Shown: one piece after another, positions 1-11,079 of the stretch | Position numbering within the stretch: position 1 is the first letter of the stretch | Layout: every line of letters starts with the position of its first letter | IMG/VR virus record: IMGVR_UViG_3300029893_000037 | Location: 1-38,416 of that record | DNA length: 38,416 nucleotides | Origin: a virus | Reading direction: 5' to 3' (one strand) | The notes under the pieces: model-generated | Told to the model about the DNA's origin: nothing | The model's database searches: none | Seen by the model: the letters and a program-made list of their open reading frames with translations, nothing else | Made by a program: the position numbers and the translations under genes

Positions 1-728
1 CACTCCTTTCCGGTATCGGTGCCCAACCCTGCATTCGAGCCGACCGCCGCAAGCGGCGTCGGCTCAATTTGAACGTTATGCACCGTCCCGCCAGCGCCGA
101 CTTTTTCAAGATACTCAGCAGTTGCTCGCTTGTACTTCGCGCGGTCAACCTCTTCAATATCTAGCGCGTCCACGAACATCCCGACCCTTGTAGGGTGGCG
201 CAGCTTCATCATCGCTTTATGTTCGATCTGCCGGATTCGTTCTCGCGTTACATCAAACCGTCTGGCGCATTCGTCATAGGTCAGTTCGTCCTCGAATCTC
301 ATCCTAATTACCTCTTGCTCTCTCGGCGTCAGCGTTGAGAGCGCCTGCGTTACAAGTGCCCTTGTTTGTGCTTGCTCGATGTCAGAAAAATCTGGAAGGT
401 AAAACTGCTGTTCGGCTGGAAGCATGGCAACCACCTGAGCGTGATCCATTTCCATCTCGCTGAAATTCCGTTCAAGCGGGTACAGTTGTTCGTTGCTCCA
501 CAGGTCTTCCGGCAACTTCCCGAGAACCTCACACAGGCGCGCGGCATCGGGGAATAGATCGCCTTCCGCAGTTAATGGGCTGCTGGTCATGTTAATTAGG
601 CTATTCACCCTCGCGTAGCCGAGACCGTTGGCCTCGCACCACTTATTACCGGGCGAACCGCCAACATCTTCAATCGCTTTTAGCAGCCTGTTATTCCTGA
701 CCTTTACGGTTATTCTGTAGTCTTTCAT
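1..728 (-). CDS. HTH plus sigma-70 region 4 protein, 3' end beyond the window
   Basis: At least 242 residues, running off the left edge without a stop. The ATG at 728 is chosen because GAGGACGAA precedes it and the N-terminus (MKDYRITVKVRNNRLL) continues smoothly; an internal ATG at 590 is a weaker choice. Residues 10-80 look like an XRE-type helix-turn-helix. Residues 125-178 match sigma-70 region 4, including LTPREQEVIRMRF and the recognition helix VTRERIRQIEHKAMMKLR, the RpoD signature. There is no region 2, so it cannot by itself bind a -10 element as a full sigma factor does. It may instead act as a regulator, an anti-sigma decoy or a region-4 mimic (inference). The C-terminal codons read KVGAGG and then through the attC-like site at 21-81, so its tail is probably acquired sequence. 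Confidence 0.85.
   Translation of the reverse strand, partial: MKDYRITVKVRNNRLLKAIEDVGGSPGNKWCEANGLGYARVNSLINMTSSPLTAEGDLFPDAARLCEVLGKLPEDLWSNEQLYPLERNFSEMEMDHAQVVAMLPAEQQFYLPDFSDIEQAQTRALVTQALSTLTPREQEVIRMRFEDELTYDECARRFDVTRERIRQIEHKAMMKLRHPTRVGMFVDALDIEEVDRAKYKRATAEYLEKVGAGGTVHNVQIEPTPLAAVGSNAGLGTDTGKE
21..81 (-). repeat. attC-like site 1
   Basis: GCCCAAC (21-27) and GTTATGC (75-81) flank a strong hairpin. On the minus strand GAGCCGAC pairs with GTCGGCTC and GCCGC with GCGGC around a two-base loop, with one unpaired G. The unpaired base on one arm is typical of attC sites, where it sets strand choice. The sigma-like gene reads through this site. Confidence 0.68.
83..104 (-). repeat. Copy 1 of a 22-23 bp direct repeat beside attC-like sites
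   Basis: Minus strand AAAGTCGGCGCTG, four variable bases, then GACGG. It lies just before attC-like site 1 and encodes the residues KVGA near the end of the sigma-like protein. The same sequence precedes two other attC-like sites in the window. Confidence 0.75.
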
Positions 729-743
729 TTCGTCCTCAAAAGC

Positions 744-809
744 GCATAACACAACGCTCGTTCGGACCTGCGCGAAAAGCCGCGCAGGCCGCACAGCTAA
801 GCGTTAGAA
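744..809 (-). repeat. attC-like site 2
   Basis: GCATAAC (744-750) and GTTAGAA (803-809) enclose a perfect 8-bp stem, CCTGCGCG with CGCGCAGG, around a six-base loop. Further inward AACGCT and AGCGTT boxes also pair. The stop codon of the 90-residue gene (797-799) lies inside the site, and the sigma-like gene starts 16 nt past its far end. Confidence 0.7.
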
Positions 810-1069
810 GGCGTGCCGCAGTTCCAATCGGGCCGCTCCCACTTGCCTTGGGCAACCGCAATGCAGTCGACCGAGTCCAGCATGTAGTCGCCGTCCGCGC
901 AGTGATCGTCTTCTGCCTTAATTGCAGTGCAAATTCGCTCGCACTCCGCAGCGGTTGCTGCCTCCCAAGCGCGGAAGGCAAACGTCTTTTCGTACTCGCC
1001 GCCACCCGCCCGGCAATACTGACCGTGCGCTTCCCACCATGCCTCAAAGCCTACTAACAAGTCGTTCAA
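797..1069 (-). CDS. Small phage-type early protein (90 aa), cassette gene
   Basis: Function not recognised. The protein begins MNDLLVGFEAWWEAHGQ and contains FAFRAWEAATAAECERICTAI. The FxAWxAA pattern with regularly spaced Ala, Glu and Cys residues is common in small early-region proteins of temperate phages of proteobacteria. The start is TTG at 1067-1069, supported by AAAGGAGCGAACC directly upstream; no ATG in frame has a better site. The TTG overlaps the preceding gene's stop as TTGA. The stop is inside attC-like site 2 and the last residues (CGTPSNA) are partly encoded by that site. It is soluble, with no membrane segment. The coupling suggests co-translation with the gene before it. Confidence 0.75.
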   Translation of the reverse strand: MNDLLVGFEAWWEAHGQYCRAGGGEYEKTFAFRAWEAATAAECERICTAIKAEDDHCADGDYMLDSVDCIAVAQGKWERPDWNCGTPSNA

Positions 1070-1129
1070 GGTTCGCTCCTTTCAGTCGCCGGACTGCCTT
1101 CGGCAGCCGCCTTAACTCCACCGTTGGGC
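1052..1129 (-). repeat. attC-like site 3, longer and degenerate
   Basis: On the plus strand it has TACTAAC (1052-1058), then CAAGTCGTTCAAG, a 20-base stretch, a CTGCC-TTC-GGCAG hairpin, CTTAACTC, and GTTGGGC (1123-1129). The TTCAAG and CTTAACTC elements match familiar attC internal boxes. The 20-base stretch holds the Shine-Dalgarno of the next gene, so the site may be partly rebuilt or inactive. One outer box deviates from consensus. Confidence 0.5.
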
Positions 1130-1419
1130 TGCTCTGCTGCGGCCTTCGCGGCGGCAATCTCTTCTCGCGTCGCAAGCCTCTTGTTCCCGAAGGCCCCCTC
1201 AATGAGCAGCGGCTTTTCCTCGCGCCACTTCTTGCACTCGTACTCGTGATACGTCCTCGCTCGATTGCCGTTCCAACTCGCATCGACGGTACGTTTTTCG
1301 GCGTCCACGCTCACGATGCGAACGGGCCACACCGCGACCGTCGAAATCGTTGTGTTGCCCATCTTGTGCCGACCCACGTCATAGACGGTCATGCCGGGCT
1401 TCAGCTTCTCGAACTTCAT
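1066..1419 (-). CDS. Hypothetical protein (117 aa), cassette gene
   Basis: Function not recognised. The start is ATG at 1419, preceded by CGAGGAGAAGAG; the longer frame upstream would run through attC-like site 4 and is unlikely. The N-terminal part (MKFEKLKPGMTVYDVGRHKMGNT) and residues 25-60 (TISTVAVWPVRIVSVDAEKRTVDASWNG) look like a small beta-rich, SH3-like fold, with KWREEKPLL after it. The C-terminal 25 residues are Ala/Glu/Gly-rich and low in complexity because they are encoded by attC-like site 3. The stop overlaps the TTG of the next gene. No cysteine pairs or membrane segment are present. It is a real gene judging by the ribosome site and ordered codon use, but its role is unknown. 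Confidence 0.75.
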   Translation of the reverse strand: MKFEKLKPGMTVYDVGRHKMGNTTISTVAVWPVRIVSVDAEKRTVDASWNGNRARTYHEYECKKWREEKPLLIEGAFGNKRLATREEIAAAKAAAEQPNGGVKAAAEGSPATERSEP

Positions 1420-1438
1420 CTCTTCTCCTCGGGCCGCA

Positions 1439-1496
1439 GCCCAACATTTCAATGCAGCGGATTCGCTGCGCTCACCGCTGATTTCCAGCGTTAGGC
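1439..1496 (-). repeat. attC-like site 4 (best match)
   Basis: GCCCAAC (1439-1445) and GTTAGGC (1490-1496) both fit the integron RYYYAAC / GTTRRRY core boxes exactly. Between them GCAGCG and CGCTGC form a hairpin with a GATT loop, and CAGCG / CGCTG outer pairs extend it. The site is 58 bp, within the attC size range. The 122-residue gene stops inside it (1472-1474), and the 117-residue gene starts 20 nt past it. Confidence 0.75.
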
Positions 1497-1840
1497 GCTA
1501 AACCCGCCGTCGTATCAGCGCCGACTTTTCCATCCTCGCGGCAAAATTCACGCCACTGCTCCAGCGCCTCATGTGCCGAGTCCCACCACTTGCTCACCGC
1601 TGCCGTGTCCTTGCTGCTCAACAGCAGGCATTCCAGTTCGAGCGCCAGCCTGTGCGCGACCGGAAAAACATCACGCATCCCCTCGCTCAGGTAATCGACC
1701 GTCTCGCGCAGTTCGCCGTTGTCCTTGTCAAGCTCTCGCAGCTTGCCGGCCGCCTGCCGCATCGCTTCGGCCTTCACTGGCGTTGCCGCCTTGAAAGCTT
1801 CGCGCTCCAAGTAGCCCGCGTATCGTTGTGCCATGCTCAT
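1472..1840 (-). CDS. Hypothetical helical protein (122 aa), cassette gene
   Basis: Function not recognised. The start is ATG at 1840 with GGAGGATTGAAG upstream; this places it 17 nt beyond the core box of attC-like site 5, the usual cassette spacing. Residues 1-65 (MSMAQRYAGYLEREAF ... LRELDKDNGELRETVDYL) are predicted helical with heptad-like spacing, and residues 70-105 include WDSAHEALEQWREFC. This is the style of many small early-region phage proteins. The C-terminus is KVGADTTAGLAPNAGNQR: KVGAD comes from the shared direct repeat and the rest from attC-like site 4. It may have lost its original C-terminus when the cassette formed (inference). Confidence 0.75.
   Translation of the reverse strand: MSMAQRYAGYLEREAFKAATPVKAEAMRQAAGKLRELDKDNGELRETVDYLSEGMRDVFPVAHRLALELECLLLSSKDTAAVSKWWDSAHEALEQWREFCREDGKVGADTTAGLAPNAGNQR
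1506..1528 (-). repeat. Copy 2 of the direct repeat beside attC-like sites
   Basis: Minus strand AAAGTCGGCGCTGA, then variable bases and GACGGC, ending about 10 nt before attC-like site 4. It encodes KVGADT at the end of the 122-residue protein. Confidence 0.75.
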
Positions 1841-1854
1841 CTTCAATCCTCCGC

Positions 1855-1917
1855 GCCTAACCAGGCGCTCAAGCGGGACCGCCCGCAAGCGGCCGGCCCC
1901 TTAGCTCTGCGTTGTTC
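1855..1917 (-). repeat. attC-like site 5, at the phage junction
   Basis: GCCTAAC (1855-1861) is an exact core box. The partner GTTGTTC (1911-1917) is only partly conserved. Between them the plus strand reads CAGGCGCTCAAGC, a GC-rich hairpin, and CTTAGCTCTGC, the classic attC internal boxes. The stop of the truncated DUF2303 gene (1869-1871) lies inside. This is the boundary between cassettes and ordinary phage early genes. Confidence 0.7.
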
Positions 1918-2366
1918 CCCTCGGGTGCCGTCTTGTCAGCGCCGACTTTCTGGCACGGCTCGAACGTGCAGCGGTGGTCGCGCCACTTGGCTTCGTCTGC
2001 GCCGTTGTCGTTCATGACGGCAACCAGTGTGCAGCCAGATTTCTCGGCGTCGACATTGGCGTAGATCACGCATTCATCGAGACTGCCATGCTTCTTGGCA
2101 TAGGCAATAAAGCTGTCGGTCGTGGTGACGCTGACCTCGGCGCGCTTGCGCGTCGGCGCCGGCAGCAGATGCTCAAGGCTATGCACCGTGTAGCCATCCG
2201 GTGCGACCAGATAGGGGATGCCGCTCGCTGGGTCGATGACTGCTTCCAGATCGGATGTGACGGGCGAGCGCGGCACGCCAACAGCTGAGCCAAAGCGCAG
2301 AAGCATTTCGGCGTCACCGCGCACGGTCTTGGCATTGGGTGTTTCGAGTTTGTTCGGCTGGTTCAT
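1869..2366 (-). CDS. DUF2303 family protein, C-terminally truncated (165 aa)
   Basis: Residues 1-138 match the start of DUF2303, a phage early family often found beside recombination genes. Recognisable parts are PDGYTVHSLEHLLPAPTRKR (57-76), TTDSFIAYAKKHG, CVIYANVD and VAVMNDNGADEAKWRDHRCTF. Family members are usually around 260-280 residues. Here homology stops just after WRDHRCTF, and the frame continues as KVGADKTAPEGNNAELRG, encoded by the shared direct repeat and attC-like site 5. The start ATG has GAGGACGCC upstream. It follows the 118-residue gene by 9 nt in the leftward operon. Biochemical role unknown in the family; this copy is probably non-functional or altered. Confidence 0.8.
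   Translation of the reverse strand: MNQPNKLETPNAKTVRGDAEMLLRFGSAVGVPRSPVTSDLEAVIDPASGIPYLVAPDGYTVHSLEHLLPAPTRKRAEVSVTTTDSFIAYAKKHGSLDECVIYANVDAEKSGCTLVAVMNDNGADEAKWRDHRCTFEPCQKVGADKTAPEGNNAELRGRPLAGGPA
1927..1949 (-). repeat. Copy 3 of the direct repeat, inside the DUF2303 frame
   Basis: Minus strand AAAGTCGGCGCTGA, then AGACGGC, placed exactly where DUF2303 homology ends. It encodes KVGADKTA. This copy therefore marks the recombination junction. Confidence 0.75.
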
Positions 2367-2375
2367 GGCGTCCTC

Positions 2376-2732
2376 TTAGGCGGCGACGTGCTTGAGTTCG
2401 CGCGCCGGTTCGGCGGCGACTGGCTTGAGTTCCATCTTCATCTGGCGCGGATCGTCGGCCAGCAGGTTGCCTTCCGGCGTCGGCCACAGCAGGGACTCGG
2501 GCGGCAATCCCTTCGGCTTCTTGATGGCGACGGATGCCTTGACGGCCATCGCGCCGGCCGTGCTGGGCTTGACGTCGACCTTGAGCGTCAGAGTGCCGGC
2601 CTTGTTGGTGGAAGAAATGGCCTTGATGAGGTCGGCAAATTGCTCGCCGGCATGGTCGAGCAGCGGGATCAAGTCGCCTTGCTCGTTCTCGACTCGGACA
2701 TCGCGCAGGTTTTCGTTGATGGGCTTGCTCAT
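2376..2732 (-). CDS. Conserved phage early protein (118 aa), function unknown
   Basis: Begins MSKPINENLRDVRVENEQGDLIPLLDHAGEQFADLIKAI and continues with a beta-rich stretch (TLTLKVDVKPSTAGAMAVKASVAIKKPKGLPPES). I know this type as the gene usually next to DUF2303 in recombination operons of phages from proteobacteria, but no activity is established. A good ribosome site (AAGGAGTAAGCATC) precedes the ATG. The C-terminus is lysine- and glutamate-rich (MKMELKPVAAEPARELKHVAA). No membrane segment or cysteine motif. It lies between dut and the DUF2303 remnant and is surely co-transcribed with them. Confidence 0.8.
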   Translation of the reverse strand: MSKPINENLRDVRVENEQGDLIPLLDHAGEQFADLIKAISSTNKAGTLTLKVDVKPSTAGAMAVKASVAIKKPKGLPPESLLWPTPEGNLLADDPRQMKMELKPVAAEPARELKHVAA

Positions 2733-2765
2733 GATGCTTACTCCTTGTTGTCTGTGGGTGATAGA

Positions 2766-3257
2766 TCAGTTGCCTGTGTGGCCGAATCCGCCAGCGCCGC
2801 GCGCCGTGGTTTCGGTGAATTCTTGAACGATGGCGAACTTTGGGCAGACGACAGGGGTAATGGCCATCTGCGCCAGGCGTGACAGTGGTTCAATCACGAA
2901 TACCTCGGAGCCGCGGTTCTCGATGGCCATGATGACTTCGCCCTGGTAGTCGGCATCGATCAGTCCGACGACATTGGAAAGGACGATGCCGCGCGAGCCA
3001 AGCCCGGATCGCGGCAGCAGCAGGGCGCCGAAGCGCAGTTCGACATCTGCCGGTTCGTCGATCGGCTGCATGTGGATGGAGAATCCAGCCCCGACCTTCA
3101 CCTTTCCGCCTGGGTACAGGTTGATTTTGGCTGTCATCGGCTTGGTTTCGAGTCGGCAGGCCCGCAGATCGAGTGCGCACGATCCTGCTGTTGCGTATTT
3201 CGGGCGTAGTTCGTCGGTATCGATGCGCGGGTCGAGAATCTGCATTTCAATCTTCAC
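2766..3257 (-). CDS. dut: dUTPase (deoxyuridine 5'-triphosphate nucleotidohydrolase)
   Basis: Hydrolyses dUTP to dUMP and pyrophosphate, limiting uracil in phage DNA and feeding dTMP synthesis. All five motifs of the trimeric family are present in 163 residues: motif 1 AGSCALDLRA (24-33), motif 2 PRSGLGSRG (82-90), motif 3 GLIDADYQGE (98-107), motif 4 RLAQMAI (127-133) and the C-terminal arm RGAGGFGHTGN (153-163). The length is normal (about 150-165). The ATG overlaps the stop of the exonuclease gene by 4 nt, so translation is coupled. Nothing suggests loss of function. Confidence 0.96.
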   Translation of the reverse strand: MKIEMQILDPRIDTDELRPKYATAGSCALDLRACRLETKPMTAKINLYPGGKVKVGAGFSIHMQPIDEPADVELRFGALLLPRSGLGSRGIVLSNVVGLIDADYQGEVIMAIENRGSEVFVIEPLSRLAQMAITPVVCPKFAIVQEFTETTARGAGGFGHTGN

Positions 3258-4888
3258 GCTGCTTTCCTCATGTTTGCGGTTTGCAAATGGCGAATGATCG
3301 CGTCGAGCATCAGCGACAAGTCGGATGCCTTGTAAAGCGTGGCCGCGCGATCGCGCCCGACAGCCTCAAAGCCGAGTTGCGCCAAGCCGGATGCCGTGAT
3401 GGAAAGCGGCGCGATGGCGGCGTTGATGTCGCCGAGCTTGATGCGGGCGCCGTTGTCAGCCGGCAGGGTTTCGCGTTGCCCAAGCGCAGGAGTTTCCCCG
3501 GTTCCCTCTTTCGTCGATGCTTTGACGAGGCTGGCTGGTGGTATTTGTTCGTTTGCCGCACGCGCTTCTGCTGCGGCCTTGCGTTCTTCCTCGGCCTTGC
3601 GCTGCGCTTCGCGTTCCTTTTCCTGCTGGACGCGATTGGCTACCAGATTGGCGAAGTCTTCCGGTGCCTTGGTGCACACTTGGGCGAAGTCGGGGAACAG
3701 ATGGCCATGCTCGGCCATGATCTTCTTGTTCTTCGTGACCATCAGGCTGAGTTCATTGGCTGCGCTTTTCTGTTTGGCGAGTTCGGTTTGAGCCGCGTCG
3801 CGCAGGCTGGCGATCGACTTCTTGCCCTTCATGGCATCGGCCAGGACATCCTTGATGGTGGGCGAGATAACCGCAATCCCGAGGTCGTCATTCAATTCGG
3901 CTGCGTGCTGCGCAAAGGCGAGTTGCGCATCCAGCAGAATCTCATGCCTGATGGCTTCTTTCCGCGCCTTCACTAGCTTATCCAGTTCGAGCCGCTTGCT
4001 GCGCATCATGGCCTTGATCTCGTCCATGGCGCGGAACAGGGTATCGATGTCGCTGGCCTGGGCTTGTGCCTGTGCCTTGACCAGTTCGATCTTCTTCTCG
4101 CCGTCGTCGAGGAACTTGACGGTCGATTCAGCAGTGGCGAAGTCAGTATCGCTTTTTAGGTCGGTGTTGATTTCGCCTATTCTGGCTACTACGACATCCT
4201 TCCATTGTGCGAGGTTCGATGCGACTACGCTTCCGCTGATCTGAATGTTGAGCGCCGGTAAGTCGGCAATCGGCGCGGCGACTGCCGCCGGGATGACTTC
4301 GAAGTGCTGGTAATTGCGCAGATCCTCGGCAAACTGCTTCCACCCGGCGATGATGGCGGCGCGGCGCTCTGGCCTGGATTCGTACCAGACCTTGCCGCGG
4401 ATGGCTTCGTTGTCCGCGCCGACGAACAGAATGCGTTCAGCACCGCTGACGAGCAGTTGCTGTTCAAGCTGCGGCCAGTGCGAGTCGGAGATCTCGGCGC
4501 CATCTGCCATCATCGCCTCGATCTTCTGCGACCACAGCTTGCACTCGAAGCCAGTCGATTCGTCCATCGTCAGGCCGTCCATGCTGGCGAGCAGCTTGAG
4601 GCCGTCGAGTTCGATCGACAGGGTGACGGGGTAGAGGTCTTCCTGTAGGTAGGCTTCGGCCAGTGGGCGGGCGACGGCTTCGGCTTCGTGTCCGGCATCA
4701 AAGCGGCGCTGCGCCATGGCATCGACTTCCGGCGCGATTCCGGTCGCTTTGAGGCGCAGCAGTTCGGTGCGCGTCATGTATGGGCTGGTGCCCATCATTG
4801 CCGCGGCTTCGCTGGCCGTGAAGCAGGTAGCGCGAAGGGCAAGCCATTCCCGGCTGCCTTGAGTGACTTCATGGATGGTTTTGTTCAT
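3254..4888 (-). CDS. YqaJ-type (lambda exonuclease-like) recombinase nuclease with long C-terminal extension
   Basis: A 5'-3' exonuclease expected to resect double-strand ends for the annealing protein encoded next to it. Residues 1-190 are the YqaJ domain: EVTQGSREWLALRATCFTASE at the start, then MDGL (Asp104), ECK (Glu115, Lys117) and WPQLEQQL (138-145), which supply the PD-(D/E)XK residues. At 544 residues it is much longer than lambda exonuclease (226). Residues 205-345 are helical and may form coiled coil (FLDDGEKKIELVKAQAQAQ); residues 400-460 are charged (QQEKEREAQRKAEEERKAAAEAR). The last 75 residues form a small Ala/Leu-rich domain. The start ATG lies 9 nt downstream of bet. Confidence 0.9.
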   Translation of the reverse strand: MNKTIHEVTQGSREWLALRATCFTASEAAAMMGTSPYMTRTELLRLKATGIAPEVDAMAQRRFDAGHEAEAVARPLAEAYLQEDLYPVTLSIELDGLKLLASMDGLTMDESTGFECKLWSQKIEAMMADGAEISDSHWPQLEQQLLVSGAERILFVGADNEAIRGKVWYESRPERRAAIIAGWKQFAEDLRNYQHFEVIPAAVAAPIADLPALNIQISGSVVASNLAQWKDVVVARIGEINTDLKSDTDFATAESTVKFLDDGEKKIELVKAQAQAQASDIDTLFRAMDEIKAMMRSKRLELDKLVKARKEAIRHEILLDAQLAFAQHAAELNDDLGIAVISPTIKDVLADAMKGKKSIASLRDAAQTELAKQKSAANELSLMVTKNKKIMAEHGHLFPDFAQVCTKAPEDFANLVANRVQQEKEREAQRKAEEERKAAAEARAANEQIPPASLVKASTKEGTGETPALGQRETLPADNGARIKLGDINAAIAPLSITASGLAQLGFEAVGRDRAATLYKASDLSLMLDAIIRHLQTANMRKAA

Positions 4889-4897
4889 GGCTTGCTC

Positions 4898-5797
4898 CTA
4901 GCCGTTCATCAGTGCGTCGGTGCGCTGCTGGTAGAGCGCGGTCAGTTCTTCCCGCTGCGCCGGGTCAGACACTTCCCCGATCAAGTCGGCGGCAACGTCG
5001 AGAACATCAACGCTCGTCGCCTTTTCTATCTGGCCCTTGATCTGCGCGAACAGGTCGGGTGCTTCGGCCGGCGCGCGGATCGCGGACTTCTGTTCCTCGG
5101 ATAGCACGCCCTTGCTGCTGACCATGGCAATGATCTGGTCTGCAGTCTTCTTGCCGGCTGCGATGGCCTGGTGCCATGCCGGCAGGTTCTTTTTGAACTG
5201 GTCGGCAGGGTAGGCGGATGGTTCCTTGACGCGCTCTGCTGTTCCGTTGATGACTGTCCCGCTGGCCTGCCCACCAACACCTTCCGTACCTTCGACAATG
5301 CGCTCTGCTTCGTCCTGGTCGTAGATTCCGGTGTAGCCGAAGGCGAGGCGAGCGCACTGGATCAGCGCCTTGTGCCTGAGCATGCGTTTCGGGTGCGACT
5401 TCCACGGCCCGGTGTCGCGGCTGCACTCGTCCTTGTATTCCGTGACCTTGATCGGCTTCGATCTGTCCTTGCGATAGATGACGCAAGTGCAGTCCTTTTC
5501 TGACTGCTCGAACTCCAGCCCATCGAATTGAGGATGCTCGTTGATGATCCGCGACCATCCGTCGACACCAACAACCGGGACGATCCCGTTGTTTTTGTCC
5601 GGGAAGGCGTAGATTTCCTTCGTCCAAGGATTCAGGCCGTACTGGTTGGCGACGATCAGCAGCGCCGTCATCTGTGCATCAGATACCTGTCCTTTGAATG
5701 CGGTCGCCTTGAGCGTGTCCAGAAGCTCCGGGCTGTTGCTCATGTCGAAGCGCTGCGCGAGCTTGCCGGTTAGAGAGGTCAATGCTGTGCTGTTCAT
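4898..5797 (-). CDS. bet: Bet/RecT-family single-strand annealing protein
   Basis: Anneals complementary single strands in phage Red-type recombination, working with the exonuclease encoded directly downstream. The core is residues 20-190: LLDTLKATAFKGQVSDAQMTALLIVANQYGLNPWTKEIYAFP, then VPVVGVDGWSRIINEHPQFDGLEFEQ and HPKRMLRHKALIQCARLAFGYTGIYDQDEAERI. These are hallmark stretches of the Bet/RecT superfamily. Length 299, a little above lambda Bet (261); the extra is a C-terminal tail of about 100 residues, possibly for SSB contact (inference). The start overlaps the stop of the winged-helix gene by 4 nt. Confidence 0.94.
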   Translation of the reverse strand: MNSTALTSLTGKLAQRFDMSNSPELLDTLKATAFKGQVSDAQMTALLIVANQYGLNPWTKEIYAFPDKNNGIVPVVGVDGWSRIINEHPQFDGLEFEQSEKDCTCVIYRKDRSKPIKVTEYKDECSRDTGPWKSHPKRMLRHKALIQCARLAFGYTGIYDQDEAERIVEGTEGVGGQASGTVINGTAERVKEPSAYPADQFKKNLPAWHQAIAAGKKTADQIIAMVSSKGVLSEEQKSAIRAPAEAPDLFAQIKGQIEKATSVDVLDVAADLIGEVSDPAQREELTALYQQRTDALMNG

Positions 5798-6099
5798 TCA
5801 GTGTTCTCCTTGAGTCGGTAGTAGTAGCTGCCGCGCGGCCCTTTGCGCTGTGCAACCTGGTTGGTGTCGATCAATTCACCCAGCAGGCGGCGGGCATGGG
5901 CTGAACTGAGTTGAGTTTTCTTGCAGATCTGCGCGACGCTGCATTCGGAGGTAGCTTGAGCGATCGCCTTGAGTACGTGTTCGCGCTTGGCGTCGAGTTT
6001 TTCGGTGCGCCGAGTTGTCGGTTTCTTGGCGGGCTTCTCGATTGGCGGCGTGGTGGTGGTTGCCATCAGCATGGCGATGCAGGTCAGCCATTTGCTCAT
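5794..6099 (-). CDS. Winged-helix DNA-binding protein (101 aa)
   Basis: The start is ATG at 6099 (MSKWLTCIAMLMATTTTPP); it overlaps the previous gene's stop as ATGA, so the longer open frame upstream is rejected. Residues 40-98 (KREHVLKAIAQATSECSVAQICKKTQLSSAHARRLLGELIDTNQVAQRKGPRGSYYYRL) have a winged-helix pattern: three helices and a wing ending in a YYYRL strand. The first 35 residues are Thr/Pro/Lys-rich and probably disordered. It could regulate the leftward operon or help recombination; there is no direct evidence for either. It overlaps bet by 4 nt. Confidence 0.75.
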   Translation of the reverse strand: MSKWLTCIAMLMATTTTPPIEKPAKKPTTRRTEKLDAKREHVLKAIAQATSECSVAQICKKTQLSSAHARRLLGELIDTNQVAQRKGPRGSYYYRLKENTE

Positions 6100-6314
6100 G
6101 CCTTCCGCTTCCGCTTCGCCATGCCATAGGACGGTTCGGCCGAGTAGGTGCAGATCGTCCGGTCGCGGTATTGTTCGCTGGCGATCAGCCGCTCGCCTTG
6201 CGCAGTCGGGCAGATGCGCGCCACTTGTTCGGCCTGGTGCTGTCGCCCGAAGTCGAAAGCCAGCGCAGGAATGCCGAGGATCATCACTGCGGCGAAAACG
6301 ATCCGGTCGGTCAT
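6096..6314 (-). CDS. Small protein with N-terminal membrane segment (72 aa)
   Basis: Begins MTDRIVFAAVMILGIPALAFDFG. The stretch 5-20 is a single hydrophobic segment, either a membrane anchor or a signal peptide cleaved near ALA-F. The rest is soluble, with Cys35 and Cys55 (VARICPTAQGERLI; RDRTICTYSAE) that could form a disulfide if exported, and a basic end (MAKRKRKA). It is linked to both neighbours by 4-nt ATGA overlaps. Function unknown. Confidence 0.7.
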   Translation of the reverse strand: MTDRIVFAAVMILGIPALAFDFGRQHQAEQVARICPTAQGERLIASEQYRDRTICTYSAEPSYGMAKRKRKA

Positions 6315-6475
6315 ACTGCTCTCCGTTCATTGATCGCCAGCGTGTCCAGCAGACGGTCGACTTCGGCGATCCGCTGCCGCGCATCGCTCTCGGCCGCCTT
6401 GTTGCCGGACGCGTGTGCCATGTAGAGGTCAAGCGCCGCGCCGTAGCGCAGGAACAGGTACCAGTAGCGCATCAT
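6311..6475 (-). CDS. Small helical protein (54 aa)
   Basis: The start at 6475 (MMRYWYLFLRYGAALDLYMAH) overlaps the preceding gene's stop as ATGA; a longer frame from 6493 is less likely. An aromatic N-terminal helix is followed by SDARQRIAEVDRLLDTLAINERRAV, a second amphipathic helix. Function unknown. Its stop overlaps the start of the next gene. Confidence 0.65.
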   Translation of the reverse strand: MMRYWYLFLRYGAALDLYMAHASGNKAAESDARQRIAEVDRLLDTLAINERRAV

Positions 6476-6798
6476 TCGCCTCGCTTCCCCCATTCCTTTT
6501 CGGCCATCATTACGATGGCCTGGGTAATGAGGTCGTCAAGCTCGATGGCAGCAACGAGCGTTCCGCCAGCGGCCTTCTTGAGCGTTTCCGCGAACTGCGC
6601 CGGGTTCTGTTCGAGGTACATGCCGAGCGCCTCGGCCAGCTCTTCCGGATCCTTGTAAATCTCGACCACGCGGGCATCCAGGAAGCGCCTGCGCATTTCC
6701 GGCACGGTGTCGTAGAAATCGGGCGGATTCACCGGCCAGTTTGGCGGAGAGGCCAGCGGATTGCAGATCGAGCGCGCGGCGCGGAAAAAGTCGTTCAT
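6472..6798 (-). CDS. Hypothetical early protein (108 aa)
   Basis: The start ATG at 6798 has GGAGAGATCGA upstream and overlaps the stop of the 26-residue gene. The protein begins MNDFFRAARSICNPLASPPNWPVNPPDFYDTVPEMRRRF and continues as helices (KDPEELAEALGMYLEQNPAQFAETLKKA; AAIELDDLITQAIVMMAEKEWGKRGE). No catalytic motif or membrane segment. It is the first sizeable gene of the leftward operon. Function unknown. Confidence 0.72.
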   Translation of the reverse strand: MNDFFRAARSICNPLASPPNWPVNPPDFYDTVPEMRRRFLDARVVEIYKDPEELAEALGMYLEQNPAQFAETLKKAAGGTLVAAIELDDLITQAIVMMAEKEWGKRGE

Positions 6799-6875
6799 TC
6801 GATCTCTCCATCGAACAGCCACCACAGCAGCATTGCGCAGCCGATGGCGATGTTGTCGAGCAGTTTGTCAATCAC
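6795..6875 (-). CDS. Very small membrane-type protein (26 aa)
   Basis: GTG start at 6873-6875 with an excellent ribosome site (AAAGGAGGACGAC). It encodes MIDKLLDNIAIGCAMLLWWLFDGEIE, an amphipathic helix followed by a short hydrophobic segment. The stop overlaps the next ATG by 4 nt, as in the rest of this operon. It may simply be a leader that couples translation. It is the first coding unit after the early promoter. Confidence 0.6.
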   Translation of the reverse strand: MIDKLLDNIAIGCAMLLWWLFDGEIE

Positions 6876-7353
6876 GTCGTCCTCCTTTGTCAATCACCCA
6901 GGGAGCCGGCTCTGTTGCGGCACCGTTCGACCGCAGCGGATTTACGGATTCCGCCAATCGGCGCGGTTTAAGGACAATGCCCGCGCCCCGTCCCTGCTCT
7001 AAGTGCCGTCAAGTGTTTGGCAGCCGTCGCACTTGTCGGCCAGCTATTCATGCCGCTGGCAGGCTCAATCAGCAGTATGGGCAAGCCCCCGGAACAGGGT
7101 GGCGCCCCATTCCTGCACAATTTCAAGCTCTGGCCGGCGCGGTGTCTCTCCGCATGTGCTGTACCGGCTTTCTCGTTACCCATGGGTGCCATCCCATGAG
7201 CCTCGACCGACCTCTGGCGTGTTGCTTGCCTCTACTGCTGACTACTTGTTGCGCCCTACCGGGTGATTCAGGTTTCGAGCGGCCTTATAGCGAAGCTAGT
7301 ACCGGAGGAACCCTGACAGTGCCTTTCGGGGTATTGCTGTAGTGCTTGGGAGT
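6876..7353 (-). other. Long leader of the leftward early operon, no convincing gene
   Basis: About 480 bp lie between promoter 7354-7382 and the first gene. An open frame at 6968-7192 (minus) has no family resemblance or good ribosome site. A perfect stem-loop, CATGGG-TGCCAT-CCCATG, sits at 7181-7198. GCGGATTTACGGATTCCGC at 6937-6955 holds two CGGATT half-sites like those in the operators. In lambda this position carries N and nut sites; I see no arginine-rich N-like protein. Confidence 0.45.
7181..7198. other. Stem-loop in the early leader
   Basis: CATGGG (7181-7186) pairs perfectly with CCCATG (7193-7198) across a six-base loop. There is no T-run after it on either strand, so it is not an intrinsic terminator. 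It may be a processing or antitermination element in the leftward transcript (inference). Confidence 0.35.
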
Positions 7354-7382
7354 ATTAGAATCCGAAAACGGATCCATGTCAA
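7354..7382 (-). promoter_or_regulatory. Leftward early promoter (PL-like) with operator in the spacer
   Basis: On the minus strand TTGACA (7377-7382) and TCTAAT (7354-7359) are separated by exactly 17 bp, a near-consensus sigma-70 promoter. The spacer carries the imperfect palindrome GGATCCGTTTTCGGATTC (7358-7375), which resembles a second palindrome upstream of the repressor gene. A repressor bound there would cover both hexamers. It reads into the bet-exo-dut operon. Confidence 0.75.
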
Positions 7383-7396
7383 GCCGGAAACGGCTT
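7381..7396. other. Stem-loop at the 3' end of the repressor gene
   Basis: AAGCCG and CGGCTT pair across a four-base loop (GAAA on the plus strand). It lies 17 nt past the repressor stop on the minus strand but is not followed by a T-run there, so terminator function is doubtful. It abuts the -35 box of the leftward promoter. Confidence 0.35.
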
Positions 7397-7412
7397 TCAC
7401 GAAAGAAAATTT

Positions 7413-7727
7413 TTAGTCGTGCTTGTTTTCTGCCGTAGACATTGCAGCGCGCAATCTGTCGTACAGGGCTTTTTCTTCTTTTGTGATATTGCTTATGATA
7501 TAGGGATTCCGAGGATCAAGATCGGGAACTAGCAGCATCCATGCTTGCAGATGGAAAGCGCTGGCAATCGCTTGCAGATTGTCAATCCCAATGGCGGACT
7601 GTTTATTGCACGCACGCGCGATCGTGCCTTCTCCGACGCCACAGCGCTTTGCCATCTTGAGGTTGGTTAGCTTGTACTCGTCCTTCAGGCGATTCAGATT
7701 GCCGGCCACAACAGATTTGATATCCAT
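7413..7727 (-). CDS. CI-like HTH repressor (104 aa)
   Basis: The ATG at 7727 (MDIKSVVAGNLNRLKDEY) is preferred over one at 7802, because the latter would put the operator palindrome and most of the control region inside the gene; neither has a strong ribosome site. Residues 5-65 are an XRE/CI-type helix-turn-helix: LTNLKMAKRCGVGEGTIARACNKQSAIGIDNLQAIASAF. The remaining 40 residues (QAWMLLVPDLDPRNPYIISNITKEEKALYDRLRAAM) form a short C-terminal arm. There is no S24 protease domain, so it is not a RecA-cleavable LexA/CI type. It is divergent from the Cro-like gene and probably holds the lysogenic state by binding 7358-7375 and 7750-7767. Confidence 0.85.
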   Translation of the reverse strand: MDIKSVVAGNLNRLKDEYKLTNLKMAKRCGVGEGTIARACNKQSAIGIDNLQAIASAFHLQAWMLLVPDLDPRNPYIISNITKEEKALYDRLRAAMSTAENKHD

Positions 7728-7749
7728 GTAGCCAGTTTGCAAAAGAAGT

Positions 7750-7767
7750 GAATCCGAAGGTGGATTA
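7750..7767. promoter_or_regulatory. Operator-like palindrome between the two regulators
   Basis: AATCC-GAAGGT-GGATT is an inverted repeat with the same arm sequence and 16-bp overall spacing as AATCC-GAAAAC-GGATC in the leftward promoter. Its position between the divergent HTH genes suits autoregulation and control of the rightward promoter. Confidence 0.6.
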
Positions 7768-7770
7768 ACG

Positions 7771-7799
7771 TTCTTGCAATGAAGCAGTTTACGTATTAT
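7771..7799 (+). promoter_or_regulatory. Possible rightward early promoter (PR-like)
   Basis: TATTAT (7794-7799) is a fair -10 box, and TTCTTG (7771-7776) stands 17 bp upstream as a poor -35 box. The transcript would start only a few bases before the Cro-like ATG at 7811, giving a very short leader. The weak -35 box contrasts with the strong leftward promoter. Confidence 0.35.
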
Positions 7800-7810
7800 C
7801 ATGTTTCACC

Positions 7811-8071
7811 ATGAACCTAGCAAACGACATTCGCGCACGGCTCAAGCCCATGAGCTACGAGGAACGGGATGCAGTAGCCAAGGCTACTGGAGTGCCGTTT
7901 TCCACGGTGCAAAAGATCGCCATTGGCCAGACTGAGGATCCTCGCGTTTCGACCGTGGAAGCACTGGCCAAGTATTTCGGCATGACGCTTGAAATCGCGC
8001 CAATGCAGAAAGCCGCCTCGCGCCAATGCAGAAAGCCGCCGCTCGCGATACGGCAAAGGCAGCCTAAATGA
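7811..8071 (+). CDS. Cro-like HTH protein with a frameshifted C-terminus (86 aa)
   Basis: First gene of the rightward operon, and a likely antagonist of the repressor. Residues 15-60 are helix-turn-helix: YEERDAVAKATGVPFSTVQKIAIGQTEDPRVSTVEALAKYFG. The last 20 residues are altered by a 23-bp tandem duplication (7995-8040). Without it the frame would end APMQKAAARDTAKAA at a TAA a few bases earlier; with it the protein ends QCRKPPLAIRQRQPK. The DNA-binding part is intact. A strong terminator follows at 8111-8141. Confidence 0.85.
   Translation: MNLANDIRARLKPMSYEERDAVAKATGVPFSTVQKIAIGQTEDPRVSTVEALAKYFGMTLEIAPMQKAASRQCRKPPLAIRQRQPK
7995..8040 (+). repeat. 23-bp perfect tandem duplication
   Basis: Bases 7995-8017 and 8018-8040 are identical (TCGCGCCAATGCAGAAAGCC plus GCC). 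Because 23 is not a multiple of three, the second copy shifts the reading frame of the Cro-like gene. Confidence 0.95.
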
Positions 8072-8110
8072 AATACTCCTCCCCCAGATGCGTCAGCACC
8101 TTTTGCCGGC

Positions 8111-8141
8111 AGCCCGCAAGGGTTCGCGGGCTTTTCTTTTT
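8111..8141 (+). terminator. Rho-independent terminator after the Cro-like gene
   Basis: AGCCCGC pairs with GCGGGCT across an eight-base loop, followed by TTTTCTTTTT. A textbook intrinsic terminator in the rightward direction. Downstream early genes may need antitermination or their own promoter. Confidence 0.85.
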
Positions 8142-8438
8142 CTACTGGCGGCAGTTGCGGATATCCGTATCCATCATGCGTTTGTCGACATCCGCTATGG
8201 TCTGTGCGTTGGCCTGCTGGATTTCGCGCGCCATGTCCATGCAGAGTTTGAATCCAGCATCGTTCGAGCCGAATTCGATGGCCATGGCCTTGCACTCGAA
8301 GAATGCCCGCGCGGTATCGGCCGACGCTTCTTTCCGCGTGGCCTCCAGCTGCTTGAGCTTGTCTGCGCACGTTGCTTGCCCGCATGCGGACAGCGGCAAC
8401 AAGAGGATCACGGCAATTACACCAATTGGCTTGTTCAT
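8142..8438 (-). CDS. Small secreted lipoprotein (98 aa)
   Basis: The start at 8438 has AGGAGCCTCAATCG upstream. MNKPIGVIAVILLLPLSACGQ is a lipoprotein signal with lipobox LSAC (Cys18). The mature part contains ATCADKLKQLEATRKEAS, CKAMAIEFGS, KLCMDMAREI and a C-terminal IRNCRQ; its four further cysteines could form disulfides in the periplasm. It is the only minus-strand gene to the right of the control region and so could be expressed in the lysogen. Such lone lipoproteins in prophages are sometimes superinfection-exclusion factors, but nothing here proves that. Confidence 0.8.
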   Translation of the reverse strand: MNKPIGVIAVILLLPLSACGQATCADKLKQLEATRKEASADTARAFFECKAMAIEFGSNDAGFKLCMDMAREIQQANAQTIADVDKRMMDTDIRNCRQ

Positions 8439-8452
8439 CGATTGAGGCTCCT

Positions 8453-8704
8453 GTGAGTTCTTCATTCTCGCGCAATAACGAAACCTCGCCACTCGGGAAA
8501 TGTACCGCGCCCGTGCCCGGTTTCAAAGTCCCCGAGGAAACCTTCGACGCGATGAACCGCGAGGCCCGCGATGCCGGGATGAGCTTGTCGGAATGGATGC
8601 GGACGCTGTGCATGGTGCGGGTCCATGGGATTGATGTTGTCACCAGCCTACATCGTCAGCGTCTCGAAGTCGTATCAGGAATGGTGAAGGAAAGGAGAGA
8701 TTAA
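8453..8704 (+). CDS. Ribbon-helix-helix type small regulator (83 aa)
   Basis: GTG start at 8453 with GAGG five bases upstream. Residues 20-50 (PGFKVPEETFDAMNREARDAGMSLSEWMRTLCMVRVHG) have the strand-helix-helix pattern of Arc/MetJ proteins: a short basic strand, helix A, the GMS turn and helix B. The first 15 residues are Ser-rich and flexible. It would bind DNA as a dimer. It starts 14 nt from the divergent lipoprotein gene and overlaps the next ATG as TAATG. Confidence 0.72.
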   Translation: MSSSFSRNNETSPLGKCTAPVPGFKVPEETFDAMNREARDAGMSLSEWMRTLCMVRVHGIDVVTSLHRQRLEVVSGMVKERRD

Positions 8705-8931
8705 TGGCCGAGCAGCATGACACGCTCAAGGAGTGCCGCTTCATCACATGGCTTGGGCTTGGTCCGAAGGAAGAACGGTACACCGCCTGTTCCAGGCTGG
8801 ATCTTCTGACGAACTACCACGCTGCATTGCAGCGCCGGGTGAATTGGGACGGCATCGATCGTGTTGTCGTGATGCGCCACATCACCCAGGAAATCGAGCG
8901 AGAGCAGATGCTTTCAAAGGATCGAGGGTAA
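8704..8931 (+). CDS. Hypothetical protein (75 aa)
   Basis: Starts MAEQHDTLKECRFITWLGLGPKEERYTACSRLDLLTNYH and ends in a charged helix (RHITQEIEREQMLSKDRG). The TAATG overlap with the preceding gene indicates coupling. Two cysteines are unpaired. No family recognised. Confidence 0.7.
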   Translation: MAEQHDTLKECRFITWLGLGPKEERYTACSRLDLLTNYHAALQRRVNWDGIDRVVVMRHITQEIEREQMLSKDRG

Positions 8932-8935
8932 AGCG

Positions 8936-9244
8936 ATGCAAGGCCAGCAGATCAGTATCGATTTCAGCGCCGCCACGCATGCTCGGCGCACGGATCCGGA
9001 AACCAGCAAGCAGGCCGCCGCACGGGTGCGCGAGTTTGCGTCCGGCCAGTGTGCGGAGATTCTTGTCCTGCTGCGCCGCTATGGCGCCATGACGCCGGAA
9101 ATGATCGCGGCCAAGATGGGGATCGATGCCTATGCGGTGAGGAAGCGCTTGCCTGAACTTGAGCGCAGTGGCATGGCCCGGCCCAATGGGATGACCGCGC
9201 CGACGATCAGCGGCAGAAGCCAGCGGGTTTGGGAGGCGGTGTGA
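8936..9244 (+). CDS. Winged-helix protein (102 aa)
   Basis: Residues 15-35 (HARRTDPETSKQAAARVREF) carry the RxTDPxTSxxAA motif seen in many phage proteins that end in a winged helix. Residues 40-100 form the wHTH: AEILVLLRRYGAMTPEMIAAKMGIDAYAVRKRLPELERSGMARPNG, then a wing and SGRSQRVWEAV. Probably DNA-binding; target unknown. It begins 4 nt after the previous gene, and the next small gene overlaps it by 4 nt as GTGTGA. Confidence 0.8.
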   Translation: MQGQQISIDFSAATHARRTDPETSKQAAARVREFASGQCAEILVLLRRYGAMTPEMIAAKMGIDAYAVRKRLPELERSGMARPNGMTAPTISGRSQRVWEAV

Positions 9245-9336
9245 AAACGATCAACCGGACAACGGGATTGCAACCCGGCGCGGCTTCGCCTATCGGCCGC
9301 GTGTCCGACCATCTTCACCTGATGGGCGGGAGATAG
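9241..9336 (+). CDS. Possible small gene (31 aa)
   Basis: GTG start inside the preceding stop, with GGGAGG four bases upstream. It encodes MKTINRTTGLQPGAASPIGRVSDHLHLMGGR. Length, ribosome site and overlap agree with the coupled small-gene style of this phage, but there is no homology to support it. Otherwise the 96-bp gap is non-coding. Confidence 0.4.
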   Translation: MKTINRTTGLQPGAASPIGRVSDHLHLMGGR

Positions 9337-9340
9337 GCAA

Positions 9341-9895
9341 GTGGCTGAAAAGCGAAAGCAAATTAGCAAACGAGTCCGCTTCGAGGTGTTCAAGCGGGAT
9401 GGGTTCAAGTGCCAGTATTGCGGATCAGTACCGTCACAAAGGGTTCTCCATGTCGACCATATCGTTGCGGTTGCCAACGGAGGGAACAACGGGATGGACA
9501 ACCTGATTACATCATGCGAATCCTGCAACCTCGGGAAAAGCGCGATTCCACTGACCTCAATTCCAGAAAGCCTTAGAGATAAGGCTATCCGAATCAGGGA
9601 GCAGGAGGAACAGATCAAGGGCTACGCAAAGGCAATGGACGAAAAACGGGAGCGCCAAGAGTGGGAAATGTGGCGCGTTGCTGATGCCCTTGATCAAGGT
9701 AGCCCGGAAAGTGGAATGCTTAAAACCAGGTTGCAGAGTATCAAGACGTTCCTATCTCGCCTTGACTACTACGAGGTTCTGGAGGCGGCAGAAAGAACTT
9801 CAAACATGAAGGGCCGGCTTACTGACTACTCATTCCGGTACTTCTGCGGAATCTGCTGGGCAAAGATTAAAGAGGCAGATAATGGCCCGCGCTAG
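9341..9895 (+). CDS. HNH endonuclease (184 aa)
   Basis: The HNH fold spans residues 12-67: RFEVFKRDGFKCQYCG (Cys24, Cys27), LHVDHIVAVANGG (His40), MDNLITSCESCNLGKS (Asn54, Cys59, Cys62). The cysteine pairs hold a structural zinc and His40 is the catalytic histidine of the betabeta-alpha-metal motif. The C-terminal 110 residues are helical (QEEQIKGYAKAMDEKRERQEWEMW) and probably bind DNA. It may be a free-standing homing-type nuclease inserted beside the replication gene, which it overlaps by 14 nt, or a packaging or replication helper. Its DNA looks AT-richer than the flanking genes, which fits recent arrival. GTG start with GGGAG upstream. Confidence 0.9.
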   Translation: MAEKRKQISKRVRFEVFKRDGFKCQYCGSVPSQRVLHVDHIVAVANGGNNGMDNLITSCESCNLGKSAIPLTSIPESLRDKAIRIREQEEQIKGYAKAMDEKRERQEWEMWRVADALDQGSPESGMLKTRLQSIKTFLSRLDYYEVLEAAERTSNMKGRLTDYSFRYFCGICWAKIKEADNGPR

Positions 9896-10730: not shown

Positions 10731-11079
10731 ACCTTGGATCGACAGAATCTTTGGACGCATGGAGGCGCTTTATGGATCGCTGTTCCTTGAGCGGTGGCGT
10801 GGCACGCGGCTTGCCGAAGTCAAGGCGGTGTGGGCGTCAGAGCTTTCGAGCTTCACGGACAACCCGGAGTGTTTTGGCCTGGCGCTCAAGGCGCTGCTTG
10901 ATGAATGCAGGTTCCCGCCGACGCTGCCCGAGTTCGTCGCCTTGTGCCGCAAGCATTACCGGCGCCCGACCGAGGCCGTTGCTGTCCTCGAACACAAGCT
11001 GACGGCAGAAGATGTCGAGCGCAACCGGGCGCGGGCCAAGGATCTCGTTGAAAAGCTCGGGCGGAGGCTGGCCACATGA
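10669..11079 (+). CDS. P-like replication protein, helicase loader (136 aa)
   Basis: Expected to deliver the host DnaB helicase to the origin-bound initiator. The pattern fits phage replication protein P: PEPWIDRIFGRMEALYGSLFLERW, VKAVWASELSSFTDNPECFGLALKALLDECRFPPTLPEFVALCRKHYRR (50-100). The FPPTLPEFVALCR block is the most typical part. It is shorter than lambda P (233), which is common for this family outside lambda. The start ATG lies 62 nt inside the O-like gene; AGGGGAAGGGGAA upstream serves as ribosome site. It ends with a helical tail (RARAKDLVEKLGRRLAT). Confidence 0.85.
   Translation: MNNEVAATSGTLPGKLSVLPEPWIDRIFGRMEALYGSLFLERWRGTRLAEVKAVWASELSSFTDNPECFGLALKALLDECRFPPTLPEFVALCRKHYRRPTEAVAVLEHKLTAEDVERNRARAKDLVEKLGRRLAT

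What the first reader, a model, noticed from the sequence alone, without database searches (positions are those of the whole stretch)
1..1917. Integron-style attC cassette array carrying phage early genes, without integrase
Five sites with inverted core boxes and hairpins separate four small minus-strand genes; stops lie inside sites and starts just beyond them. The exact GCCCAAC/GTTAGGC pair at 1439-1496 and the TTCAAG and CTTAACTC boxes elsewhere are hard to explain by chance. The cargo looks like typical small phage early proteins, not resistance genes. If real, host integron integrases could shuffle early genes of a phage, a route for reassorting anti-host functions that I do not know to be described in this form.
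Basis: partly seen in the sequence, partly recalled or inferred. Interest (0 to 1): 0.88.

Follow-up and report, generated by a model that had tools for sequence, protein, structure and literature searches.

The report
Phage-borne integron with inverted cassette genes
The left end of this phage contig is a real array of swappable gene cassettes (an integron array), and related phages carry the same kind of array together with their own integron integrase, so these viruses appear to have a built-in gene-shuffling platform, with the genes pointing the opposite way from ordinary integrons.

Summary
A covariance model built from bacterial attC sites scores sites D, A and E at 45, 43 and 32 bits; B is moderate (16.9), C is at background (9.3). 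The sites lie on the PLUS strand, the genes on the minus strand. The array is probably not an orphan: the closest sister contig (L023) has the same phage recombination genes, a differently composed array, then an integron integrase. Window bases 1-78 are identical to its intI-proximal site, so the window most likely stops just short of intI. Related IntIs form a supported clade in phages with podo-, sipho- and myo-type marker genes and in a prophage of an isolate, with an attI-like sequence and intact catalytic residues. Nearly identical phages differ by whole cassettes, block edges mostly at the AAC/GTT core. In 96 inter-site intervals of 28 loci the gene is inverted relative to attC in 64, not inverted in 3, unclear in 29; bacterial-genome arrays show the reverse. 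The commonest recognisable cargo is DNA methyltransferases and Mom. Phage integrons are published (Qi et al. 2023); a phage-specific lineage with inverted cassettes I did not find described. Activity and expression are untested.

The parts
21..81 (+). attC site A; intI-proximal in the sister contig
   Evidence: R1 42.7 bits; 1-78 identical to L023 9474-9551; identity stops one base after the GTT of R'
744..809 (+). attC site B
   Evidence: R1 16.9 bits, E 0.054, over 746-807; structural scan 10.0; minus-strand fold z -4.9
1052..1129 (+). attC-like site C, probably degenerate
   Evidence: structural scan 9.3; R1 9.3 bits = background; fold not significant
1439..1496 (+). attC site D
   Evidence: R1 45.2 bits, E 4e-9
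1855..1917 (+). attC site E, outer end of the array next to the phage genes
   Evidence: R1 32.0 bits; 94.7% identical over 57 nt to the L023 site 8650-8706, which stands with a different gene; fold not significant
3..728 (-). cassette gene c1, sigma-70 region 4 protein; 3' end beyond the contig
   Evidence: PF04545 1.9e-21, phrog_351 3.5e-17; the automatic codon rule did not pick this gene in its interval
797..1069 (-). cassette gene c2, unknown function; relative in an L023 cassette (61% aa)
   Evidence: codon score -: 5.1, +: -1.2
1066..1419 (-). cassette gene c3, unknown function
   Evidence: codon score -: 23.8, +: -4.0 for the ORF 1066-1452; no family at E 0.001
1472..1840 (-). cassette gene c4, unknown function
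   Evidence: codon score -: 17.6, +: -3.6 for the ORF 1472-1888; no family at E 0.001
1869..2366 (-). DUF2303 phage gene, truncated by the array (phage homology ends at about 1956)
   Evidence: PF10065 profile 21-109 of 269 only; full 294-aa gene in L019
83..105 (-). dispersed 23-nt element after site A
1507..1529 (-). dispersed 23-nt element after site D
   Evidence: 4 mismatches
1928..1950 (-). dispersed 23-nt element after site E
   Evidence: 4 mismatches
2376..5797 (-). phage early operon leading into the array: phrog_204 gene, dUTPase, YqaJ/RecE-like exonuclease, Bet/RecT annealase

Best explanation
Window 1-1917 is the distal part of a phage-borne integron that belongs to a phage-associated integron lineage. 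The complete module in related phages reads: early recombination genes (Bet, YqaJ and the like) - attC cassette array - attI - intI - (in most) an ordinary phage integrase. [quoted passage not shown] The attC, attI and intI geometry is classical (intI reads away from the array), but the cassette genes are inverted. I infer that they are therefore transcribed by the phage early leftward operon rather than by an integron Pc promoter, and that intI is transcribed at the end of the same operon. Shown: sites, their strand, gene orientation, IntI and an attI-like sequence in relatives, phage genes on the same contigs, cassette turnover at the core. Inferred: activity, expression, that the window itself continues into intI, and a role in swapping host-takeover and anti-restriction genes.
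For: attC. Sister contig L023/L070: Bet-like, YqaJ, truncated DUF2303, array and IntI on one 19-kb contig that also encodes a homologue of the window's 25.6-27.5 kb protein (63%). IntI: TIGR02249, closest solved structure IntI4 2a3v, catalytic R-H-R-H-Y in 31 of 31 clade members examined. Clade of 30 rows with 97/90 support: 22 viral records and 8 bacterial loci. attI-like sequence: a loose pattern matches upstream of intI in 30 of the 33 rows that I put in the lineage. attC hits in viral intI loci: 97 of 98 and 34 of 36 on the strand opposite to intI. Phage structural genes on the same records; a prophage in Aromatoleum toluolicum with portal, prohead protease, terminase, IntI and an integrase. 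Orientation: 64 inverted, 3 same, 29 unclear of 96 intervals against 3 inverted, 14 same, 13 unclear of 30 bacterial-genome intervals. Turnover: 30 of 39 hand-listed block edges within 5 nt of an AAC centre, 16.6% expected.
Against: The window itself has no intI and no attI; continuation is inferred from 78 identical bases in one other contig. Site C is at background and B is marginal; E does not fold better than shuffles. 29 of 96 intervals had no clear gene direction, and the cruder longest-ORF measure gives 49 inverted, 15 same, 31 ties of 95. In the window's first interval the codon rule preferred a plus-strand ORF (5.3 against -17.2), because the long c1 frame fell outside its overlap rule; Pfam puts the gene on minus. 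9 of 39 block edges are not at an AAC; edges are not independent, since one event gives several, both members of a pair were counted and one edge was listed twice. The attI pattern is loose: it also matches 8 of 16 other viral rows and misses L027 (no upstream DNA held), L032 and L035. The IntI bootstrap had not settled. Many records are incomplete metagenomic contigs. In Denitromonas halophila the clade member sits beside what look like host genes and I saw no second integrase there. The promoter scan is at background.
Confidence: 0.83

Rival explanations
1. Orphan attC cluster (CALIN): the phage picked up a few cassettes from a host integron and relies on host integron integrases.
For: I found no intI in the 38-kb record (ORFs, families; a dedicated integrase search of the window was not run). 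CALINs in virulent phages are published, and five of six tested phage sites recombined with IntI1 (PMC9892861).
Against: intI lies beyond a site identical to window 1-78 in the sister contig. In the two published phage integrons that I compared, genes run mostly in the attC direction; here they are inverted.
Confidence: 0.1
2. Chimera or neighbour: a chromosomal integron assembled onto, or lying next to, a prophage fragment.
For: The array is at the contig end, and metagenomic contigs can be chimeric.
Against: The same order (recombination or DUF2303-type genes - array - intI) recurs on other contigs and in an isolate genome. G003 is a 38.3-kb record with YqaJ, array, intI, int and structural genes; its two ends look by eye like two halves of one attC with about 10 nt of stem missing, as in a circular genome opened in the hairpin, but the scan called no site across the join. 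The attI-like pattern matched only 2 of the 41 other bacterial-genome rows of the tree set (L118, L142, both poor).
Confidence: 0.04
3. IntI serves as the phage's own lysogeny integrase, and the array is a by-product of integration into host integrons.
For: IntI sits where lambda-like phages keep int (recalled); no second PF00589 match was found on the 19-kb L023 contig.
Against: 16 of the 23 phage records searched (22 with an IntI, and G002 without) hold two or more PF00589 matches; in 14 of them a second integrase lies about 0.7-4.5 kb from IntI, in G023 and G024 it is farther away. T. denitrificans RG has a PF00589 integrase right after intI. L023's contig is partial.
Confidence: 0.06
4. 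Chance hairpins, terminators or another repeat family.
For: Sites B and C are weak.
Against: Three sites at 32-45 bits with a model from unrelated loci; no other structural hit in 38 kb; cassette turnover at the core in relatives.
Confidence: 0.01

Closest known systems
Integrons and CALINs in bacteriophages (Qi et al. 2023, PMC9892861; parts 1-3 of 7 of the text read: abstract, introduction, methods, results into section 3.4)
   Same: attC arrays, some with intI, in phage genomes; methyltransferase cargo in some; phage attC can be used by IntI1
   Different: Their complete integrons are parts of, or very close to, host chromosomal or class 1 integrons in temperate phages. In the two I fetched, annotated genes on the array side of intI run 12 of 15 (Vibrio p16, stretch fetched) and 14 of 14 (Shewanella M16-3, 6372-11674) in the direction of the attC hits, of which R1 found only 1 and 3. 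Here a phage-associated IntI clade has its own attI-like sequence, a recurrent place and inverted genes.
Sedentary chromosomal integron (recalled definition)
   Same: intI-attI-attC array, canonical site polarity, functionally obscure cargo
   Different: Carried by phages, short array, genes inverted, near phage recombination genes and int
Treponema 'reverse' integron (PMC3607928, passages only)
   Same: intI and cassette genes transcribed in the same direction
   Different: There intI is transcribed toward attI; here intI keeps the normal position and direction relative to attI, and it is the genes inside the cassettes that are turned
Phage accessory-gene hotspots such as those of P2-like phages (PMC9122126, search listing only)
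   Same: A defined genome place with variable host-interaction genes
   Different: Here a site-specific recombinase and its sites explain the turnover

Membership tests
Integron (complete) | Array of attC sites with R''/L''/L'/R' and an extra base in L'' | tested here: met
   3 of 5 window sites at 32-45 bits, one at 16.9, one at background
Integron (complete) | intI gene of the integron-integrase family | tested here: inconclusive
   Not seen in the window record; present in sister L023, G003 and 44 viral loci, L023's record included
Integron (complete) | attI next to intI | tested here: inconclusive
   Conserved attI-like sequence in relatives, where some exchange blocks also end (L328, L329, L337); not in the window; not tested functionally
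Integron (complete) | Cassette gain and loss at G|TT | tested here: met
   In relatives L044/L045, L036/L037, L322/L337, L008/L337; in the window, identity with L023 stops at the R' core of site A
Integron (complete) | Cassette genes in attC direction, read from Pc | tested here: not met
   Genes inverted in 64 of 96 intervals, same in 3, unclear in 29; Pc not sought beyond a consensus scan of window 1-8500
Integron (complete) | Recombination by IntI | not testable with these tools
   Catalytic residues conserved in 31 of 31 examined
CALIN | At least two attC without intI nearby | tested here: inconclusive
   True for the truncated record; the sister shows intI beyond the same site
Treponema-type reverse integron | intI transcribed toward attI | tested here: not met
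   The attI-like sequence lies at the 5' side of intI in relatives
Phage origin | Phage hallmark genes on the same record | tested here: met
   Window portal, major head protein, TerL pieces, internal virion protein; relatives

The most novel reading that the evidence does not exclude
There is a distinct class of viral integrons: a monophyletic phage IntI with its own attI and a pool of inverted cassettes, installed at the end of the early operon of podo-, sipho- and myo-like temperate phages, by which phages exchange DNA-modification and other host-interaction genes with each other by integrase-mediated single-strand recombination rather than only by homologous recombination.
Probability: 0.7. 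Interest if true: 0.87.

Novelty: new variant of a known kind. Interest (0 to 1): 0.78.

Why it matters
Phage mosaicism is usually explained by homologous or illegitimate recombination. A phage-encoded integron gives a site-specific way to swap single early genes between phages; in the cargo seen here the commonest recognisable genes are DNA methyltransferases and Mom, that is, likely tools against restriction. The inverted genes suggest how an integron can be rewired to another operon's promoter, and they define a cassette pool that an ordinary bacterial integron would take up in silent orientation. It can be tested in prophages of culturable, non-pathogenic bacteria.

Tried and rejected
(2) IntI as lysogeny integrase for the group: most records searched carry a second integrase; still open for L023's group. 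(3) A conserved C-terminal peptide 'KVGAD' at cassette ends: the 23-nt element is read in all three frames (44/21/31 of 96), so it is not a peptide signal. (4) SOS control of intI: a LexA-like pattern gave one match each upstream of L032 and L036 among 31 loci; a script slip left the matched letters unprinted, so I draw nothing from it. (5) Promoters and terminators: at background. (6) Relatives of c1 in viral contigs: none by this search. (7) Rfam (gathering threshold) and tRNA: nothing. (8) A first orientation control with the phage-trained codon model was too weak (7 same, 4 inverted, 12 unclear of 23) and was replaced, whose codon model is trained on long ORFs of bacterial loci.

Rows dropped: the IntI tree used 49 of the 80 genome loci (53 extracted, 4 dropped as truncated or duplicate) and 37 of the 44 viral loci, plus G003, Rctr41k and two published phages. 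The orientation count used 28 loci (27 records; L071 and L072 are one), some near-identical, L056 outside the clade, and some bacterial contigs not shown to be prophages. The bacterial control used 12 of 13 loci given (one interval was too long). The 39 block edges are those at or in the arrays; edges elsewhere in the same comparisons were not listed. The cargo alignment A2 held 79 proteins chosen by me.
Full report
WHAT THE WINDOW IS. The record is a 38,416-base virus contig: portal, major head protein, terminase pieces and internal virion protein on the right; Bet, YqaJ-type exonuclease, dUTPase and a DUF2303 gene leading leftwards on the minus strand. No Rfam family (gathering threshold) or tRNA was found. 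The finding lies at the distal end of that leftward operon and at the contig end.

THE SITES ARE attC, ON THE PLUS STRAND. Read on the plus strand the sites have the textbook layout (recalled) R''-5 nt-L''(3+1+n)...L'-5/6 nt-R' with one extra base in L'', e.g. A: GCCCAAC CCTGC ATT C GAGCC ... GGCTC AAT TTGAAC GTTATGC. A scan for that layout finds five hits in 38 kb, all in 1-1917 and all on plus; ten simulated windows gave 0-1 each. I wrote this scan after seeing the sites. The stronger test is model R1, built from 26 attC of bacterial-genome integron loci (picked with the same layout scan, none from the window). It scores D 45.2, A 42.7, E 32.0, B 16.9 and C 9.3 bits; 9.3 is also the score of an unrelated place at 26511. 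Folded as single-stranded DNA, the minus strand is the more stable at all five sites, by 0.5 to 3.7 kcal/mol; against shuffles A, B and D stand out, C and E do not.

GENES ARE INVERTED. c1 to c4 and the DUF2303 fragment are on the minus strand, so each gene runs against its attC, starts near the R'' box of its own site and stops inside, or runs through, the previous site. Direction rests on Pfam for c1, on the codon score for c2 (5.1 against -1.2), c3 and c4; in c1's interval the automatic codon rule preferred a short plus-strand ORF. DUF2303 is cut: only profile positions 21-109 of 269 match, while sister L019 has all 294 aa; homology ends at window 1956.

A SISTER HAS THE INTEGRASE. A search with the DUF2303 fragment gave L023, part of a 19,179-base contig: RecT/Bet-like annealase, YqaJ, a DUF2303 remnant, cassettes, then an integron integrase. 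The integrase passes TIGR02249 (352.4 bits, cut-off 265) and matches IntI4 2a3v (2.5e-61). The contig also encodes a homologue (63%) of the window's 25.6-27.5 kb protein. Window 1-78 equals L023 9474-9551 base for base and identity ends at the R' core of site A; site E is 94.7% identical over 57 nt to an L023 site that stands with a different gene. I infer that the window would continue through a short cassette and attI into intI, and that assembly broke at the shared stretch.

A CLADE, NOT ONE CASE. 44 viral loci, L023's own record among them, encode relatives of this IntI; an alignment query again gave 44, an overlapping set. R1 found 98 attC (E up to 1) in 48 phage pieces, 97 on the strand opposite to intI, the other in L057; 36 (E up to 0.1) in 21 further loci, 34 on that strand, the other two in L344; and 42, all on minus, in 33 loci, of which 17 of the 21 taken in by YqaJ or DUF2303 similarity had none. 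Upstream of intI the lineage has an attI-like sequence, RYYYAACTYRAATTCAACGACA...TGTCG with many variants. A loose pattern for it matches 30 of the 33 rows that I put in the lineage (not L027, where no upstream DNA is held, L032 and L035), 8 of 16 other viral rows, and 2 of 41 other bacterial-genome rows (L118, L142); so it is enriched rather than diagnostic. In a 90-row tree, 30 rows (22 viral, 8 from bacterial genomes) form a clade with 97/90 support; IntIs of Oryzisolibacter, Giesbergeria and Azonexus fall outside; the bootstrap had not settled. The catalytic R, H, R, H and Y are present in 31 of 31 lineage members examined.

THEY ARE PHAGES. Records with clade IntIs carry tail sheath (G013), tape measure (G009, G017, G018, G019), terminase (G003, G010, G015) and head-tail adaptor (G003, G012) genes; from these markers I infer myo-, sipho- and podo-like phages. 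With one terminase family, 5 of 23 viral records and 4 of 11 bacterial genomes gave a match. Of 23 phage records searched for PF00589 (22 with an IntI), 16 have two or more matches; in 14 of them the second lies about 0.7-4.5 kb from IntI. G003 (38,281 bases) holds YqaJ, array, intI, int and structural genes, and its two ends look by eye like halves of one attC with about 10 nt of stem missing; my scan called no site across the join. Aromatoleum toluolicum strain T has the module on a contig with portal, prohead protease and terminase, and a downstream integrase (Arm-DNA-bind_3 over its cut-off, PF00589 just below). In Denitromonas halophila the clade member is beside what look, by eye, like host polyhydroxyalkanoate genes, without a visible second integrase.

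ORIENTATION. Among 96 inter-site intervals of 28 viral or clade-bearing loci, a codon model trained on phage genes genes inverted, 3 in attC direction and 29 unclear; the cruder longest-ORF rule gives 49, 15 and 31 ties of 95. In 30 intervals of 12 bacterial-genome arrays the counts are 3 inverted, 14 same, 13 unclear (codon model trained on bacterial loci) and 4, 23, 3 (longest ORF); Fisher p 1e-10 and 6e-8, treating intervals as independent, which they are only partly. In two published phage integrons that I fetched, annotated genes on the array side of intI run along the attC hits in 12 of 15 (Vibrio p16) and 14 of 14 (Shewanella M16-3); R1 found only 1 and 3 sites there.

TURNOVER. L045 and L044 are 98.7-100% identical in most shared blocks (one at 90%) but differ by several cassettes; L036 and L037 differ likewise; L322 and L337, with no other shared block of 60 nt at 88%, share one 405-bp cassette (92.6%). 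Of 39 block edges that I listed by hand, 30 lie within 5 nt of an AAC centre (the GTT core read on the other strand), where 16.6% is expected; binomial P 2e-16, but edges are not independent. A cassette end that lies against attI in L337 lies against an attC in L008.

CARGO. Of 79 cassette proteins scanned, Pfam finds N6/N4 methylase in 4, Mom in 3, C5 methylase in 2, PAPS-reductase-like in 2, Dam in 1, and single cases of others including the window's sigma-70 region 4 protein; at least 56 of 79 match no Pfam family at E 0.001. PHROGs most often say DNA methyltransferase and Mom-like (25 of 79 families shown); of the 25 PADLOC families shown of 131, 24 are methyltransferases.

MECHANISM. Best supported: the phage encodes an integron whose integrase moves cassettes at attC and attI; with inverted genes the array is read, I infer, from the early operon, and new cassettes enter at the promoter-distal, intI-proximal end. 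Activity and transcription were not tested; consensus promoter and terminator scans of window 1-8500 are at background.

KNOWN OR NEW. Qi et al. 2023 (PMC9892861; parts 1-3 of 7 read) found 3 complete integrons and 1 In0 in temperate phages and 17 CALINs in 10,705 phage genomes, and showed that five of six phage attC sites work with IntI1. Treponema integrons have intI turned toward attI (PMC3607928, passages), a different inversion. A tblastn of the L023 IntI against 50,697 named phage records gave 9 records, none at 60% identity or more. Searches in an open-access library without preprints (only the listed titles and abstract starts seen) listed no description of a phage-specific IntI clade with inverted cassettes; subscription papers and preprints are not covered.

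VERDICT. Real; better than reported in that a phage integrase exists in the relatives, less new than reported in that phage integrons are known; the phage-specific lineage and the inverted genes are the new part.

Noticed in passing
L220 has five copies, the first four 316 bp apart. Unexplained.
   Followed up: partly
window 14180-15112 and 14941-15894 (+): The terminase large subunit is split over two overlapping frames (phrog_2 positions 250-403 and 423-597): a frameshift, sequencing error or programmed shift.
   Followed up: no
L050, L054, L058, L060, L061, L064: A second, separate viral IntI clade (98/97), some on records with a terminase match (L058, L060).
   Followed up: no
KX853513.1 (L154) 4680-5678: Virus Rctr41k from a DAMO/AAA enrichment culture carries an IntI-like protein (44%) annotated as xerD, integrase-like; no attC hit in the 25 kb searched.
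   Followed up: partly
L178 (Denitromonas halophila), intI at G030:C14:150956-151966: A phage-clade intI lies beside apparent host polyhydroxyalkanoate genes (named by eye) without a visible phage integrase: possibly a domesticated phage integron.
   Followed up: partly
L057 9420-12214; L344 10471-10565, 11748-11839: attC-like sites downstream of intI and in the opposite polarity from the other viral loci, as also in bacterial loci L106, L110 and L130.
   Followed up: no
window 3-728 (-): A protein with a sigma-70 region 4 as its only Pfam match over cut-off, as a cassette gene; no relative in viral contigs by this search.
   Followed up: partly
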